Program-made: the position numbers and the translations under genes
Notes under the pieces: generated by a model
Told to the model about the DNA's origin: nothing
Seen by the model: only the letters and a program-made list of their open reading frames with translations
The model's database searches: none
In this document: positions 23,864-31,570 of the stretch, one piece after another
Position numbering within the stretch: position 1 is the stretch's first letter
How the letters are laid out: each line of letters starts with the position of its first letter
Source: Anaerolineales bacterium
Lineage (GTDB): Bacteria; Chloroflexota; Anaerolineae; Anaerolineales; Villigracilaceae
Direction: 5' to 3'
Length of the DNA stretch: 37,002 nucleotides
Assembly (NCBI GenBank): GCA_013360875.1
Contig: JABWAU010000025.1
Coordinates: 1-37,002, forward strand

Positions 23864-24013
23864 TTCTCTCTCCTTTGGTTGGTCTCGAATTGTATTCGCG
23901 ATACGGTAAAAAATGAAGCCGTTCGAGCGGAAATCAACAGGCGTTTTTTTCGCAGATGTGCTACACTGTTATCGAAAGACATTGCATCCATCTTTTCGCC
24001 AAATGGAGGAACC

Positions 24014-25180
24014 ATGCGCAGGTCAACCCGTTCGTTCGTGACATCGGTGATCCTGTTCGTTTTGCTCTCGACGCTCGGAGGAAGCGCCTCCGCCGCGCCG
24101 CCCACGCGGGCAAAATGGACGGTGATGGTTTACATTTCGGGAGATAATAATCTCGAATCGTATGTCGTCCCCGATATTGAAACGGAACTTGGCGCGGTCG
24201 GTTCGAACGCGGACGTGCAGATCATCGCGCTGGCGGACCGCGTGCCCGGATACGACACCAGCCGCGGCGACTGGCAGACAACCAAGTTGTTCCGCGTCAT
24301 GCAGGGCATGTTAGCCACGCCCGAGAACGCCCTCGCCGATTGGGGCGAGCGCAACTTCGGCGACCCGCAAACGCTGATTGATTTCGTCGCGTGGACGAAA
24401 GCCAATTATCCCGCCGACCGTTACGCGCTCTACTTCTGGGGTCACGGCTGGAGTTGGCATCCCGGCTGGGTGATGGCGGACGACACCGATGAGGACACGC
24501 TGGATTACCACGAGACGAAGGCGGCGATCCCGTCGCTCGGTTTCATTGACGTGATCGGGTACGACGGTTGTAACATGGCGTCCATCGAAATCCTCGAACT
24601 CTGGCATGGACATGCCACCGCCTTCACCAGTTCGCAGGAATGGGTGGGCGGCGAAGGGATTCAATACGACCTTGTCCTCGCGCAATTAGCCGCCAACCCG
24701 AACATGACCGCCGACCAGGTGGCAATCGCCACCAGCCAAAGCGCCACCAAAGACAAGACCTGGTCTGCCGTGGCGGTGGATTCCCGCCTCGACGCGCTGA
24801 TCGCCGCCGTGGATCAATGGTCGGCGGCGTTGAACGCCGGGTTGGGAACGCATCGTAAGAAATACGATCAAGCCTTCACTGCCACGCGCTCCTTCTGGCA
24901 GGCGCCCATGGACAAAGATTTGTACGACATGGCGTACGAGATCAAGAACAAGGTGAACGACACCAACATCAAAAACAAGAGCCAGGCAGTGATGAACGCG
25001 GTCACAGGAGTGGTCCTGCACGAACGGCACGTCAACGCGTATTCCGAAGTGCGCGGCATCACGATCTATCACATCTCGAAGGCGTCGCAAAAGGATTCGG
25101 ATTACGCGTATTATCGGTCAACGGTGGATTTTGCGTTGTTTACAGGATGGGATGAGTTTTTGAACGCGTACGCGAAGTAA
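24014..25180 (+). CDS. Secreted clostripain-like cysteine protease (peptidase C11)
   Basis: A 388-residue protein with a cleavable signal peptide (RRSTRSFVTSVILFVLLSTL, ending near ASAAPP). The C11 domain starts at KWTVMVYISGDNNLE. The catalytic His is in YFWGHGWSWH and the catalytic Cys in GYDGCNMASIE, followed by TSSQEWVGGEGIQYD. Clostripain-type enzymes cut after Arg or Lys and often activate themselves. GGAGGA precedes the ATG at 24014; in-frame codons further upstream lack a site. A TACACT box lies about 50 bases upstream. Two hairpins follow the gene. Confidence 0.9.
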   Translation: MRRSTRSFVTSVILFVLLSTLGGSASAAPPTRAKWTVMVYISGDNNLESYVVPDIETELGAVGSNADVQIIALADRVPGYDTSRGDWQTTKLFRVMQGMLATPENALADWGERNFGDPQTLIDFVAWTKANYPADRYALYFWGHGWSWHPGWVMADDTDEDTLDYHETKAAIPSLGFIDVIGYDGCNMASIEILELWHGHATAFTSSQEWVGGEGIQYDLVLAQLAANPNMTADQVAIATSQSATKDKTWSAVAVDSRLDALIAAVDQWSAALNAGLGTHRKKYDQAFTATRSFWQAPMDKDLYDMAYEIKNKVNDTNIKNKSQAVMNAVTGVVLHERHVNAYSEVRGITIYHISKASQKDSDYAYYRSTVDFALFTGWDEFLNAYAK

Positions 25181-25262
25181 CCCCCTCCGCCCTAAAGGGC
25201 ACCTCCCCCAAAATCCGACGAACTCCAGTCGGATTTTGGGGGAGGCTGGGTGGGGGTAGGGA
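25181..25262. repeat. Hairpin-rich intergenic repeat
   Basis: GCCCTAAAGGGC (25189-25200) is followed by a perfect 18-base inverted repeat: 25202-25219 with 25228-25245 (core CCCCCAAAATCCGAC). Flanking C-rich and G-rich runs extend the palindrome imperfectly. It looks like a MITE-like or REP-like dispersed element; it starts right after the clostripain stop codon. Confidence 0.7.
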
Positions 25263-25265
25263 TTA

Positions 25266-25306
25266 ACAAGACCTCCAAGTTTGCGGCTCGGAGGTCTTGT
25301 AATTTT
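25266..25306. terminator. Bidirectional intrinsic terminator
   Basis: ACAAGACCTCC (25266-25276) pairs with GGAGGTCTTGT (25290-25300), followed by AATTTTATAA on the plus strand. It lies between convergent genes and touches the stop of the nuclease-like gene. Confidence 0.7.
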
Positions 25307-26228
25307 ATAATGTTTGTTTGTAGGATTGCTCTATTAAGTACATCACAGAGTCTAATTCTGATAAATTAGACAATTTTGTTTCTACTGTGCCTGTGCCGTG
25401 ATGACCAATATTTGTTACATCTCTACCCAATTTCTTGGGATCGTCTAATTCTTCATAAAGTATATCCAACCACATTTTCAAACTGTTGGATTGAATTTGG
25501 AGTTCGCAAAAATTTTTCCCGTGTTTGTAACTTATATATATCTTGTTGGGTTTTTCAATAATATCGCCATCGGCGTTTAGAGCAAAGATCCGCTCTCTTA
25601 TTGCTTCAAAAAGAATCCGTGCATCATTCGGCTTTCCCTGCAGATGGTCATCCAAAGTGTAAATGGTTTCCCCTGCATCTTCACTTCCTTGCTCAATTTT
25701 GGGGTCCGTCGCTTTTTCTTTTTTGGTTGGTTTCACATCTGTTGTGGCGAAAATGGATTCCAAGAATAAGAAATCATCCCCGTATCGTCGATATGTCCAT
25801 AGTTGGATATTGGCGCCAATCCGATTTACTGCATATTTGTCATATTCCGAGAAACTCTCTGCCACTAGAATTAATCGCGGGCTTGACCAATCAATCTCAA
25901 TATCCTTACCCAATTTCTCCTGAGCGGCAAGGGCAAAGTCGCCTTTGTGGTCTACAAGCCAATCCAGATAGAACAAGCCTTGATTGATGACATTATCTTT
26001 GCCAGATTTTTTGTACTCAACAATGACAGGCGTTCCATCCTGGTCAATGCCCAGCGAGTCGATCCGTCCTCTTTGTCTGTCGCCAGTTGTAAATTCAGAC
26101 GCGACAAAACGGACACCAAGCAATTCTTCAAGGTTTGCCTCAAATAATTTTTGCAATCCTCTCTCATTTTTAAAGGAACTTGGCTTCACTTGTGATACTT
26201 GTTGCTGCTTGATCTGATAGAGTGGCAC
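25305..26228 (-). CDS. AT-rich nuclease-like protein with DUF5655 C-terminus
   Basis: A 307-residue protein. Residues about 20-135 look like a PD-(D/E)xK nuclease fold of the NucS type: GRIDSLGIDQDGTPVIVEYKKS gives the Asp and the E-x-K pair, here seen as RIDSLG and VIVEYKKS. The C-terminal about 110 residues (LFEAIRERIFALNADGDIIEKPNK, with YISYKHGKNFCELQ) resemble DUF5655, a small domain often at the end of such proteins. The gene is much poorer in GC than its neighbours: one line sampled by eye has 17 GC of 60 and another 26 of 60, against 38 of 60 in the clostripain gene. This points to recent transfer. The start is GTG with AGGA before it. DNA cleavage or repair is inferred, not shown. 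Confidence 0.7.
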   Translation of the reverse strand: MPLYQIKQQQVSQVKPSSFKNERGLQKLFEANLEELLGVRFVASEFTTGDRQRGRIDSLGIDQDGTPVIVEYKKSGKDNVINQGLFYLDWLVDHKGDFALAAQEKLGKDIEIDWSSPRLILVAESFSEYDKYAVNRIGANIQLWTYRRYGDDFLFLESIFATTDVKPTKKEKATDPKIEQGSEDAGETIYTLDDHLQGKPNDARILFEAIRERIFALNADGDIIEKPNKIYISYKHGKNFCELQIQSNSLKMWLDILYEELDDPKKLGRDVTNIGHHGTGTVETKLSNLSELDSVMYLIEQSYKQTL

Positions 26229-26251
26229 GGTATCCGTCCTTGAATAGCCAA

Positions 26252-26257
26252 ATTATA
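26252..26257 (-). promoter_or_regulatory. -10 box TATAAT of the nuclease-like gene
   Basis: On the minus strand a consensus TATAAT lies 23 bases before the GTG at 26228, with AAGGAC between as a possible ribosome binding site. Confidence 0.5.
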
Positions 26258-26292: not shown

Positions 26293-26309
26293 CAATTACC
26301 ATTTACCAA

Positions 26310-26313
<4 letters not shown>
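26293..26313. repeat. Heptamer array covering the kbl stop codon
   Basis: Units CAATTAC, CATTTAC and CAATTAC are contiguous. The last unit contains the stop codon of the kbl gene, so the array marks the end of that gene. Confidence 0.6.
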
Positions 26314-27494
<1,181 letters not shown>

Positions 27495-27506: not shown

Positions 27507-27538
27507 CGAGAGACTAGAGAATTAGAGATTGGAGAATT
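27507..27538. repeat. Octamer array upstream of kbl
   Basis: Degenerate octamers GACTAGAG, AATTAGAG, ATTGGAGA and ATTGATCG lie in the kbl leader. They share the phase of eight seen at 29281-29383. Confidence 0.5.
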
Positions 27539-29280: not shown

Positions 29281-29383
29281 AGGTACACAAGTAAACAGGT
29301 CAACAAGTACGCATGTATTGTACCTGCCTGCCTGTCTGCGTGTCTACCTGTGTACTTGTCTACTTATATACCTGTCTACCCTC
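29281..29383. repeat. Octamer arrays in opposite orientation between two genes
   Basis: At 29287-29310 the units ACAAGTAA, ACAGGTCA and ACAAGTAC are seen. From about 29336 the units GTCTGCGT, GTCTACCT, GTGTACTT, GTCTACTT, ATATACCT and GTCTACCC follow, which are close to the reverse complement. The two arrays could fold on each other. The right array includes the stop codon of the lipid kinase fragment. Confidence 0.65.
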
Positions 29384-29654
29384 TTATCACTTTCAGTGCG
29401 TTCGGAAGAATCTCAAAAGAAACTTTGCGAATATCGGTGCCGGGACCGGAAAAGATCTCGCCGTCGGCGTGGATGTAAAGCGGGCGGTCGGCGGTGAGGG
29501 TGAACTTTTTGCATTTGTCCAGCGTGACCTGTTTGAAGCGCCCGTGCGTGCCTTTCATCACTTCGGGGACGATACGAAACATCATCGGTCTGCTGACGTC
29601 GGTGATCATGGCGTAGTCGAGGACGCCGTCGTCAATCCTCGCGTCCGGCGCGAG
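29376..29654 (-). pseudogene. Lipid kinase (DAGK/YegS-like) C-terminal fragment
   Basis: The last 92 codons of a diacylglycerol kinase-family protein: LAPDARIDDGVLDYAMITDV, then a helix EVMKGTHGRF, then LTADRPLYIHADGEIFSG and the final ILPNALKVI. This is the closing part of the C-terminal domain of bacterial lipid kinases, including the DGE motif. The N-terminal ATP-binding domain with GGDGT and the start of the second domain are absent; upstream the frame continues without a stop into a PIG-L deacetylase. The fragment belongs by style and position to the left-hand genome. It is most likely a normal gene cut by a misjoin, and not a decayed gene. Confidence 0.8.
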
Positions 29655-31538
29655 CAGGGTGGCCACAAGCGAATGCTTTCCCACCCCAAGGGAGGATGAG
29701 GGCTTCCATTCAAGTGGGACTGCCTCCTGAAGCATCTCACTCCCGGAAAGACTAAGGGTTTGCCGTTGGCCATCCGGAAAAGTCACGGCAACCGTGGCGT
29801 CTTTCGGCTCCCGAGCATGTCTCACCACCTCCAGGGAGAGTGAGGTCTCCGCGACTCGGTCCGCGCGCAAGAGCGGCGCGGCCGGATGGAAACGAAGCTC
29901 CCAGGCCGGCTCGATCTCCAAACGATATTCGCCCTCGACTCGGCCGTATCGGTCTGCTCGCTTGAGCAAGACCAAGCCTCTGAGGTTGGATGGCCAAGGT
30001 CGGAGCGCCCGGTAAAGCGACTGGGTGGCTGGAAGAGTGGGCGGCTCTTCGGGCGCCACCCCGACATGGAAGCGCCGAGTGTGTTTCTCGCCCGGGGCGA
30101 GGGTCGCCCGCGCGTCCGCCGCCCCTTCTTCTCGGATCCCTTCCACGGTCCACCCCACCGGGGCTTCAAGGCGTAGGGATTCAATCTCAACATCGATCTC
30201 CCCTCGATTCGAAACCTCCAGAATGACCTCGGACACCTCACCCGGCGTGGGGGACTTCCCCTCGTTCCGAATCTCCAAGCGAATGCCCCACAGGTCACCA
30301 AGGATTCGCTCCAATCGACGTTGCTTGTCGCCGATCGATTCCAGGGTCTCCAAGACCTGGCGCTGGTATCGCTCCATGTCTTCCGCCGACCAGAACTCTT
30401 TCTCACCGAGGACCGCTTCCGGAGGGAACCGTTCCCACTCGGTGGCGGAATCCACTTCAACGGCCCGCGCGGAGAGCGAGGCGATGGCCTCGGAGACACT
30501 CGCTTCCACCTTCAAGCGGTCCACGAGCAGGTTTGACAGCGCGAGCCGGAGAGCCGCGTTGAATTGCCGCTCAGACGCCGTTGCAGCCTCAGAAGGCCCT
30601 AAGTCCTTGAAGGGTGTAGCGCTTCCATCCAGCCACCAAGCCCCAGCCATCCCCTCAAAAAGGTCCCGCAGCTTCCCCTCAGGCCGATCTCCCACGACCA
30701 ATCGGAAAGCATTCACCGGGGATTGTTCGCGCGCGGCGTTGACCCGGCCCCAGACCCCTTTGATGCCTTGTGAGCGGTGCCGGTTAAGCGCCTCGGCGGC
30801 AATTTCCTGGAAAGTGAGTCCGCGAATCGGGTCCGGATCCGCGACCCGGATGGCAACATCGTAATCCTCCCCAGGCAGGCCCTCATGGTGGCGCGCCTGC
30901 TGGAAAAAACGCTCCACTCGCCAGGGGACAAGCCCCTCCTCCACAAGCTGGGCGGTGTAGGCCTCGGGAGAGGCCGCAAGTGGAATCGCCTCGGCGATGA
31001 GCTCCGCCATCGCTTGGTGGTTGCCATGCCCCGATCCCACCCGGTGATTGGTGATGACCACATGGGGGCGCTCCGTGCGGAGGACACGAACCAGCCTCTC
31101 CAGCGCTACCTCCCGCCGCCAGAACCGCCAGGTCTCCTCGATGGTCTTGGAGTATCCGAAGTCCTTCTGGTTCAGACAGTAGACCCGAGTGCCCAGGAGT
31201 TCAGCCGCGGCTAGAGTTTCCCTCGCGCGAATTGCCCCGAGCTCCTCGTAGAGCTCCGACCCTATCTCGTTCTGTCCCCCTTCCCCCCAATTCGCCAACA
31301 CAATGGAGGTTCGGACCCCGCGCCCACGGTTGTAGTAGGCCAAAGTCTCGCTGTCCTCGTCATCCGGGTGGGCAGCCACGCACATCAGGCGCGAGTCCGT
31401 CCCAGTCTCGAGCAGCTGCTGCCGGATTCCGGCCAGTCCTCGGTCGGGGAGCAGACGCGGGGCTTCCTGGCCCAAAGCGGCAGTGACCGCGAGGCAGAGG
31501 GCCAACAAACGCCCATATGCGGGCAAGAGGTTTTTCAT
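29376..31538 (-). CDS. PIG-L deacetylase with NEW3-like domain, fused at its end to a lipid kinase fragment
   Basis: The first about 628 residues are a secreted PIG-L (LmbE-like) deacetylase. A signal peptide (MKNLLPAYGRLLALCLAVTA, ending near ALGQE) is followed by the zinc and catalytic motif VAAHPDDEDSETLAYY (AHPDDE at about 56-61) and GSGHGNHQAMAELI with the second zinc His. A helical stretch follows, then a NEW3-like beta domain (about 430-510; SEVILEVSNRGEIDVEIESL). Such proteins remove acetyl groups from N-acetylated sugars; the substrate is unknown. The last 92 residues are from a lipid kinase and do not belong; the true PIG-L C-terminus is missing. The start could also be 31559; I prefer 31538 for the signal peptide. 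Confidence 0.75.
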   Translation of the reverse strand: MKNLLPAYGRLLALCLAVTAALGQEAPRLLPDRGLAGIRQQLLETGTDSRLMCVAAHPDDEDSETLAYYNRGRGVRTSIVLANWGEGGQNEIGSELYEELGAIRARETLAAAELLGTRVYCLNQKDFGYSKTIEETWRFWRREVALERLVRVLRTERPHVVITNHRVGSGHGNHQAMAELIAEAIPLAASPEAYTAQLVEEGLVPWRVERFFQQARHHEGLPGEDYDVAIRVADPDPIRGLTFQEIAAEALNRHRSQGIKGVWGRVNAAREQSPVNAFRLVVGDRPEGKLRDLFEGMAGAWWLDGSATPFKDLGPSEAATASERQFNAALRLALSNLLVDRLKVEASVSEAIASLSARAVEVDSATEWERFPPEAVLGEKEFWSAEDMERYQRQVLETLESIGDKQRRLERILGDLWGIRLEIRNEGKSPTPGEVSEVILEVSNRGEIDVEIESLRLEAPVGWTVEGIREEGAADARATLAPGEKHTRRFHVGVAPEEPPTLPATQSLYRALRPWPSNLRGLVLLKRADRYGRVEGEYRLEIEPAWELRFHPAAPLLRADRVAETSLSLEVVRHAREPKDATVAVTFPDGQRQTLSLSGSEMLQEAVPLEWKPSSSLGVGKHSLVATLLAPDARIDDGVLDYAMITDVSRPMMFRIVPEVMKGTHGRFKQVTLDKCKKFTLTADRPLYIHADGEIFSGPGTDIRKVSFEILPNALKVIRG
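29640..29660. other. Join between two apparently unrelated sequences
   Basis: Within about 20 bases, coding sequence changes from PIG-L protein (GKHSLVATL) to the lipid kinase end (PDARIDDGVLDY). Both families could share the residues LAP at this point, so a short sequence match may have caused the join. The exact base cannot be fixed by eye. Confidence 0.7.
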
Positions 31539-31570
31539 GGATCGTATGTTATCACACAACCGAGTTTCCC

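What the first reader, a model, noticed from the sequence alone, without database searches (positions are those of the whole stretch)
25305..26228. AT-rich NucS-like/DUF5655 gene, probably acquired
Seen: base composition differs sharply from neighbours, the start is GTG, and the gene is flanked by a repeat-rich terminator region and a heptamer array. The protein has a likely PD-(D/E)xK site (RIDSLG, then VIVEYKKS) and a DUF5655-like end. Such stand-alone nucleases travel between genomes and some act in defence. No partner gene is adjacent, so a one-gene system is possible.
Basis: partly seen in the sequence, partly recalled or inferred. Interest (0 to 1): 0.5.

Follow-up and report, generated by a model that had tools for sequence, protein, structure and literature searches.

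The report
Lone nuclease, candidate phage-defence gene
This is a single, patchily distributed bacterial gene for a two-part DNA-cutting protein that already sits in a catalogue of untested phage-defence candidates; its predicted shape and its relatives' neighbours suggest that it attacks foreign, perhaps chemically modified, DNA.

Summary
The ORF at 25305-26228 (-) is real: 307 aa, GTG start, lowest G+C (0.406) of 29 window ORFs. It matches PADLOC PDC-S18 over its full length (E 1e-105), a single-gene phage-defence candidate; I found no test of it in print. Residues ~17-160 model as the NucS/EndoMS nuclease domain (Z 13); D57/E71/K73 align with NucS D160/E174/K176 and are kept in 62 of 63 aligned rows (the other lacks that part). 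Residues 188-307 (DUF5655) model as the frataxin/YdhG/YjbR fold, with weaker likeness to T4 MotA's "double-wing" DNA-binding domain; DUF5655 also ends 12 of 12 GmrSD-type frames scanned. Distant homologues lie near restriction-modification genes in 14 of 32 neighbourhoods (controls 0 of 29), sometimes inside type I operons; in the window's close clade 0 of 11 do. "Recently acquired" is weakened: the gene follows the same aminotransferase gene in four other genomes (three genera in all), and all 11 close copies are AT-rich, although most relatives lack it and three show an empty site. Best reading: a stand-alone defence endonuclease, a new member of a known candidate family. Boldest reading: a one-chain modification-dependent restriction enzyme.

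The parts
25305..26228 (-). coding sequence, 307 aa, PDC-S18 family nuclease (stop codon included)
25749..26180 (-). residues 17-160: NucS/EndoMS-type PD-(D/E)xK nuclease domain
   Evidence: model pLDDT 82.0, pTM 0.63; 2vld_B Z 13.0, 5gke_A Z 12.8
26010..26060 (-). predicted catalytic D57, E71, K73
   Evidence: aligned with P. abyssi NucS D160, E174, K176; kept in 62 of 63 rows, the other lacks the region
25668..25736 (-). residues 165-187: predicted flexible linker
   Evidence: pLDDT under 50
25308..25667 (-). residues 188-307: DUF5655 domain, frataxin/YdhG/YjbR-like fold, proposed DNA-binding or specificity domain
   Evidence: Pfam PF18899; own model pLDDT 93.2, pTM 0.87; fold matches
26252..26257 (-). 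TATAAT, proposed -10 element
   Evidence: present upstream in all five copies at this site and in 3 of the 9 other copies printed; the consensus scan did not report it
26233..26241 (-). AAGGACGGA, proposed ribosome-binding site
   Evidence: sequence; similar in relatives
25267..25299 (.). 10-bp-stem hairpin, CAAGACCTCC / GGAGGTCTTG; resembles the hairpin that follows the aminotransferase gene in relatives without this gene
26293..26313 (.). heptamer array, a dispersed genome repeat; not specific to this gene
26310..27494 (-). upstream neighbour, class I/II aminotransferase (2-amino-3-ketobutyrate CoA ligase-like by my own reading); marks the insertion site
   Evidence: Pfam Aminotran_1_2; synteny
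23879..25180 (+). downstream convergent neighbour, clostripain-family (C11) peptidase; other side of the site
   Evidence: Pfam PF03415; empty sites

Best explanation
A stand-alone, probably NTP-independent DNA endonuclease of the PDC-S18 family that acts against incoming DNA. The N-terminal NucS-type PD-(D/E)xK domain cuts DNA with two metal ions at D57/E71/K73 (fold and residues: predicted; cutting: inferred). The C-terminal DUF5655 domain, a frataxin/YjbR-like fold, holds and selects the DNA (inferred). In many bacteria it works beside type I, type III or type IIG restriction-modification as an extra nuclease; in this Chloroflexota clade it is a single-gene system behind housekeeping genes, gained, lost and relocated repeatedly (patchiness and the several sites: shown; direction of the changes: inferred).
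For: PDC-S18 over the full length, 9.9e-106. NucS/EndoMS nuclease domain: Foldseek 4.7e-05, Z 13.0 at 2.0 A over 105 residues; D57/E71/K73 on NucS D160/E174/K176; D57, E71, K73 and Q83 kept in 62 of 63 rows, the other partial. R-M genes within 6 kb in 14 of 32 homologue neighbourhoods against 0 of 29 control stretches of the same genomes (one-sided Fisher 2.1e-5). hsdM-gene-hsdS-hsdR order in L165, L181, L182; within or next to type I R-M in 6 of 14 plasmid records opened (Aeromonas). Both viral-contig relatives have type III R-M genes upstream. L016: start overlaps the end of an SNF2/PLD helicase gene that follows a type IIG enzyme gene. Patchy: 15 of 152 family genomes.
Against: No activity shown. 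In the window's own clade 0 of 11 copies lie near R-M genes, so the association is carried by distant homologues (mostly 28-57% identical to the query used). 18 of 32 homologue neighbourhoods, and 8 of 14 plasmid records, show no R-M locus by my criteria. The R-M reference proteins were taken from homologue neighbourhoods, and several matches are weak (21-30% identity; L183, L184 and L187 rest on such matches alone). Few phage records carry it (4 of 50,697).
Confidence: 0.6

Rival explanations
1. A guard of restriction-modification: kept quiet by the R-M enzyme beside it and released when a phage blocks restriction, like PrrC, which is embedded in a type IC R-M locus.
For: Lies inside hsd operons: between hsdS and hsdR or between hsdM and hsdS. 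PrrC and DarTG2 are known genes embedded in type I loci (passages).
Against: 0 of 11 close-clade copies have R-M genes nearby, so this copy could not be silenced by a neighbour; the gene also occurs with type III and type IIG enzymes. The host has N6_Mtase matches elsewhere (5 in G000), so silencing in trans is not excluded.
Confidence: 0.2
2. A DNA-repair nuclease (NucS/EndoMS-like mismatch or damage endonuclease) with a different DNA-binding module.
For: NucS/EndoMS is clearly the closest solved fold; copies stay beside aminotransferase, ABC-transporter or SHMT/GCV_T genes in related genomes.
Against: NCBIfam NucS models are far below cut-off (15.9 against 216 bits; 14.4 against 252); only 15 of 152 family genomes and 2 of 18 genus genomes carry it; R-M neighbourhoods of relatives.
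Confidence: 0.1
3. Cargo on its way out: a formerly useful nuclease now decaying in this clade.
For: Two of the 12 close-type copies in the family are broken: G013 by an in-frame stop, G908 (= L017) by a frame change; a third, G940, is only partly held.
Against: The window copy is intact and keeps every residue checked.
Confidence: 0.05

Closest known systems
PADLOC PDC-S18 (phage defence candidate, single gene)
   Same: Full-length match, 9.9e-106 (PDLC04946) and 5.4e-81 (PDLC04945). PDCs were proposed by 'guilt-by-embedding' in known immune systems (Payne et al. 2024, doi 10.1101/2024.01.29.577857, seen only as a citation in PMC12988326; the preprint itself is not held and was not read).
   Different: This copy is not embedded: no R-M gene in the window.
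NucS / EndoMS mismatch endonuclease
   Same: Nuclease domain fold (Z 13.0) and the three catalytic positions.
   Different: In NucS the nuclease domain is C-terminal (matched residues 126-233 of 2vld_B); here it is N-terminal and followed by DUF5655. NCBIfam equivalog scores are far below cut-off.
Shedu (SduA) single-protein defence nuclease
   Same: Single-gene PD-(D/E)xK nuclease; 8ps4_A Z 8.9 over 136 residues.
   Different: Lower structural score than NucS; no Shedu-type Pfam domain listed (the Shedu domain name DUF4263 is recalled).
GmrSD-type (type IV, modification-dependent) restriction proteins with a DUF5655 end
   Same: Same C-terminal domain: GmrSD_C and a DUF5655 match in 12 of 12 frames scanned, one of them just under the DUF5655 cut-off (23.8 against 24 bits).
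   Different: No GmrSD_N or GmrSD_C domain here; the nuclease is PD-(D/E)xK.
T4 MotA C-terminal domain / YjbR 'double-wing' DNA-binding fold
   Same: C-terminal model: YjbR 2fki Z 8.0; MotA-CTD 1kaf_D and 5jlt_A Z 6.8. MotA-CTD leaves room for glucosylated hydroxymethylcytosine (PMC6755090, passage).
   Different: Z under 8 can be a mere common arrangement (note); YdhG (9.0, 8.9) scores higher and frataxins (7.1, 6.3) about as high, so DNA binding is not shown.

Membership tests
PADLOC PDC-S18 | full-length profile match | tested here: met
   E 9.9e-106, residues 2-305, profile 22-322 of 365
PADLOC PDC-S18 | this copy embedded in a known defence system (the way PDCs were proposed) | tested here: not met
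   no R-M match in the window by tblastn; no PADLOC match at E 1e-10 in 10 of the 28 other window ORFs. The family as such is found in R-M loci
PADLOC PDC-S18 | anti-phage activity | not testable with these tools
   no experiment; term searches for DUF5655 and PDC-S18 found 0 papers
DUF5655 (PF18899) | score over the gathering cut-off | tested here: met
   44.7 bits against 24
PD-(D/E)xK nucleases | core fold with D, (D/E) and K at the site | tested here: met
   Z 13.0 to NucS; D57/E71/K73 aligned; 62 of 63 rows
NucS/EndoMS | equivalog score | tested here: not met
   15.9 against 216 bits and 14.4 against 252
NucS/EndoMS | nuclease domain at the C-terminus | tested here: not met
   nuclease domain at residues 17-160, DUF5655 after it
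Shedu (SduA) | Shedu-type Pfam domain | tested here: not met
   not among the Pfam matches up to E 1; structural likeness Z 8.9
GmrSD type IV restriction enzymes | GmrSD_N (DUF262) and GmrSD_C (DUF1524) domains | tested here: not met
   absent; only DUF5655 is shared
Type IV (modification-dependent) restriction, as a mode of action | cuts modified, not plain, DNA | not testable with these tools
   needs a nuclease assay

The most novel reading that the evidence does not exclude
A one-chain, NTP-independent, modification-dependent restriction enzyme of a new architecture: a NucS-type cutter plus a 'double-wing' (MotA-CTD/YjbR-like) DUF5655 domain that reads modified phage DNA. It travels alone or inside R-M operons, so that one locus strikes both unmodified DNA (by R-M) and hypermodified DNA (by this protein); DUF5655 would be the specificity module it shares with GmrSD-type enzymes.
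Probability: 0.25. Interest if true: 0.65.

Novelty: new member of a known kind. Interest (0 to 1): 0.35.

Why it matters
PDC-S18 is a widespread candidate: 27 of 395 sampled genomes of one other phylum match at E 1e-40 or better, and 52 of 72,556 plasmid records hold a match. I found no stated mechanism for it. The domain reading given here (NucS-type cutter plus a DNA-reading domain shared with GmrSD-type enzymes) turns it into a concrete bench question. The locus also shows a candidate usually proposed by embedding that lives alone beside housekeeping genes, and a gene that is markedly AT-rich in every close relative examined, which warns against dating acquisition from composition alone.

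Tried and rejected
Recent horizontal arrival from composition alone: weakened. Plain vertical descent of all copies: rejected. G063 and G066/G067 have aminotransferases 93-94% identical but nucleases only 70-71%; G000 and G065 are 82% in both, whereas same-site pairs differ more in the nuclease than in the aminotransferase (86/92, 88/94). Presence at the site needs at least 4 changes, no fewer than shuffled labels often give (245 of 500 as low).

Heptamer array as a mark of mobility: rejected, 30 places in the genome. NucS orthologue: rejected. Solved homologue by sequence: phmmer gave no credible hit; the profile search gave NucS only at E 0.94, behind a Myc chain at 0.14, so the NucS link rests on alignment of the motif and on the fold. 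PHROGs: one match at E 0.011 to an 11-residue stretch of an unknown family, not used. Promoter and terminator scan: nothing above shuffles (1 promoter-like site against a mean of 2.3, lying inside the gene; 1 terminator-like site against 1.6); its loop limit of 8 would miss the 13-base-loop hairpin. No tRNA in the window. C-terminal domain alone: no Foldseek hit under E 0.001, best YjbR at 5.6e-03. Phage-borne spread: the single-protein viral scan found no relative, the alignment scan 2 loci. Some close relatives of the standalone DUF5655 domain (about 120-240 aa frames) were left aside as a different architecture.

Full report
What is there. The ORF exists as described: 25305-26228 on the minus strand, 307 aa, GTG start. 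Its G+C is 0.406 with GC3 0.401; the other 28 greedy-longest ORFs of at least 130 aa lie at 0.462 (one doubtful 130-aa ORF) and 0.555-0.634. Pfam gives DUF5655 over residues 193-306 (44.7 bits, cut-off 24) and a sub-threshold NucS_C match. PADLOC gives PDC-S18 over the whole length, 9.9e-106. The kind is therefore already catalogued as a phage-defence candidate.

Neighbours in the window. Upstream lies a class I/II aminotransferase gene and, convergent on the other side, a clostripain-family peptidase gene; further out are a Helicase_C_3 protein, a PIG-L/YegS_C protein, a cation efflux protein and a DUF2214 membrane protein. None of the 10 neighbours scanned matches PADLOC at E 1e-10, and no R-M reference protein matches anywhere in the window. 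I call the aminotransferase gene the site marker.

The domains. A model from 14 aligned sequences has mean pLDDT 82.0 and pTM 0.63, with a disordered linker at 165-187. Against solved structures the clear best matches are NucS and EndoMS: Foldseek 4.7e-05 and 9.6e-05, Z 13.0 (2.0 A, 105 residues) and 12.8, with the next group at 8-10. The profile alignment puts D57, E71 and K73 on D160, E174 and K176 of P. abyssi NucS, although the E-value of that match is only 0.94. In an alignment of 63 rows, R55, D57, E71, K73 and Q83 are kept in 62; the remaining row (L019) lacks that part.

The C-terminal domain modelled alone is confident (pLDDT 93.2, pTM 0.87). Its best structural partners are YdhG proteins (Z 9.0, 8.9), YjbR (8.0) and other DUF419/DUF1801-like chains, then a frataxin (7.1), the T4 MotA DNA-binding domain (6.8, twice, once from a DNA complex) and CyaY (6.3). 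Foldseek gave nothing under E 0.001. YjbR-like proteins have been argued to bind DNA by a 'double wing' (PMC7641849, passage), and MotA's double wing leaves room for glucosylated hydroxymethylcytosine (PMC6755090, passage). Frataxins score about as well, so DNA or modified-base reading is an inference, not a result. It gains some weight because the same domain ends long frames in other Chloroflexota genomes: of 18 C-terminal-only matches, 12 have open frames of 700 aa or more, and 12 of 12 of these carry GmrSD_C and a DUF5655 match (one at 23.8 bits, just under cut-off); 11 of 12 show at least a partial GmrSD_N match. GmrSD enzymes cut modified DNA (PMC4619093, passages, where DUF5655 is not among the additional domains named in the passages seen).

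Distribution. In the genus 2 of 18 genomes have the gene, in the family 15 of 152, of which 12 are the close type. In a sample of 400 genomes of the phylum 29 match the profile at E 1e-10, but only 9 of these over most of the length. A sample of 395 genomes of the phylum of L020's genome gives 27 at E 1e-40. Matches are in 52 of 72,556 plasmid records and 4 of 50,697 phage records; the single-protein scan of viral contigs found none, the alignment scan two.

Neighbours elsewhere. I took 32 stretches of up to 6 kb either side of homologues (25 from the L020 phylum sample, 7 from Chloroflexota) and 29 control stretches from the same genomes, mostly 100 kb away (none for three short contigs). R-M genes were found by tblastn at E 1e-6 in 14 of 32 and 0 of 29 (one-sided Fisher 2.1e-5). 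By phylum this is 12 of 25 and 2 of 7. In L165, L181 and L182 the order is hsdM, this gene, hsdS, hsdR; in L170 and L176 it follows hsdR; L173 and L190 have type III genes. Some matches are weak (L183, L184, L187), and the reference proteins came from homologue neighbourhoods, though they are ordinary R-M proteins. I opened 14 of the 30 plasmid records that cover at least 80% of the query: type I R-M genes adjoin or enclose the gene in 6 (Rhizobium, Cupriavidus, two Acinetobacter, S. epidermidis by annotation; Aeromonas by tblastn); the other 8 show none, one of them with a NACHT gene and a methyltransferase gene beside it. Two of these records had no annotation in the stretch. L101 and L102 (viral contigs) have type III genes upstream, and L016 an overlapping gene order with a type IIG enzyme and an SNF2/PLD helicase.

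The window's own clade is different. In the 11 close-clade loci held with longer flanks (window, L008-L014, L017, L018, L186) no R-M gene was found. The gene sits behind the same aminotransferase gene in the window, L008, L011, L013 and L014; by matching coordinates these are genera g1, g5 and g9. In g9 two further shared sites occur: L010/L012, before a MarR gene and ABC transporter genes, and L009/L017, behind an SHMT/GCV_T gene. In three genus members the aminotransferase and peptidase genes lie about 100-140 bp apart with nothing between (L024, L031, L034), against 1129 bp in the window. In L031 and L034 the hairpin CAAGACCTCC/GGAGGTCTTG (or close) comes right after the aminotransferase gene; in the window and L008 a like hairpin comes after the nuclease gene. 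So the gene entered between the aminotransferase stop codon and its hairpin, in the same direction. A TATAAT and a ribosome-binding site stand before all five copies at this site; TATAAT occurs in 3 of the 9 other copies printed. The consensus scan did not report a promoter there.

History. All 11 close-clade copies are AT-rich against their flanks (mean -0.125), more weakly so in the L020-phylum sample (17 of 25 lower, mean -0.026) and other Chloroflexota (6 of 7, mean -0.063). Composition is thus a lasting trait in this clade and no clock. The gene trees disagree in part: G063's nuclease is 70-71% identical to those of G066/G067 although their aminotransferases are 93-94% identical, and G000-G065 are 82% in both genes, so some copies moved. 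Presence at the site needs at least 4 changes on a 15-row tree and is not clustered. Two of the 12 close-type copies in the family are broken (G013, G908) and one is partial (G940).

How it most likely works. Shown: family, fold prediction, conserved catalytic positions, R-M association of distant homologues, solitary state here. Inferred: it cuts DNA, the C-terminal domain selects it, the target is foreign DNA, and perhaps modified DNA. The slot inside hsd operons is also where PrrC and DarTG2 sit, so a guard role is a serious rival, but copies without any R-M gene nearby speak against silencing by a neighbour. The host does have N6_Mtase genes elsewhere (5 matches).

Prior knowledge. Full-text term searches for DUF5655 and PDC-S18 found no paper in the library. 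PDCs were proposed by guilt-by-embedding and are mostly unvalidated, according to passages of PMC12988326; the preprint behind it (doi 10.1101/2024.01.29.577857) is not held and I did not read it, so the R-M association of PDC-S18 may well be its published basis. I therefore rate this a new member of a known kind. Papers were seen as passages only: PMC7641849, PMC6755090, PMC4619093, PMC12707154, PMC11514479, PMC12988326, PMC12255303, PMC13092281; the other papers in the listings were not opened.

Noticed in passing
window 29376-31559 (-): A 727-aa ORF joins a PIG-L deacetylase domain to the last ~90 residues of a YegS-like kinase; in L008, L011, L013 and L014 the matching part belongs to a separate ORF of about 305-331 aa. 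A deletion fusion or an assembly join.
   Followed up: partly
window 26293-26313; also 27509-27538 and 29321-29380: Heptamer and octamer arrays between genes. The CAATTAC type occurs at 30 places in the genome; relatives show other short-unit arrays at the same gene boundary.
   Followed up: partly
window ~25185-25255: A long GC-rich inverted repeat (CCTCCCCCAAAATCCGAC ... GTCGGATTTTGGGGGAGG) beside the peptidase gene end; looks like a dispersed repeat, genome copy number not counted.
   Followed up: no
L008:8001-8921 (G013) and L017:8001-8919 (G908): Close relatives of the gene broken by an in-frame stop and by a frame change.
   Followed up: partly
L198:4162-7042 (Acinetobacter towneri plasmid): A type I R-M operon carrying three extra nuclease-like genes in a row between hsdS and hsdR: HNH endonuclease, DUF5655 protein, PD-(D/E)xK family protein.
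   Followed up: no
L104:1-7888 (Rhizobium plasmid) and L201:3552-8687 (Streptomyces plasmid): NB-ARC or NACHT genes close to the DUF5655 gene.
   Followed up: no
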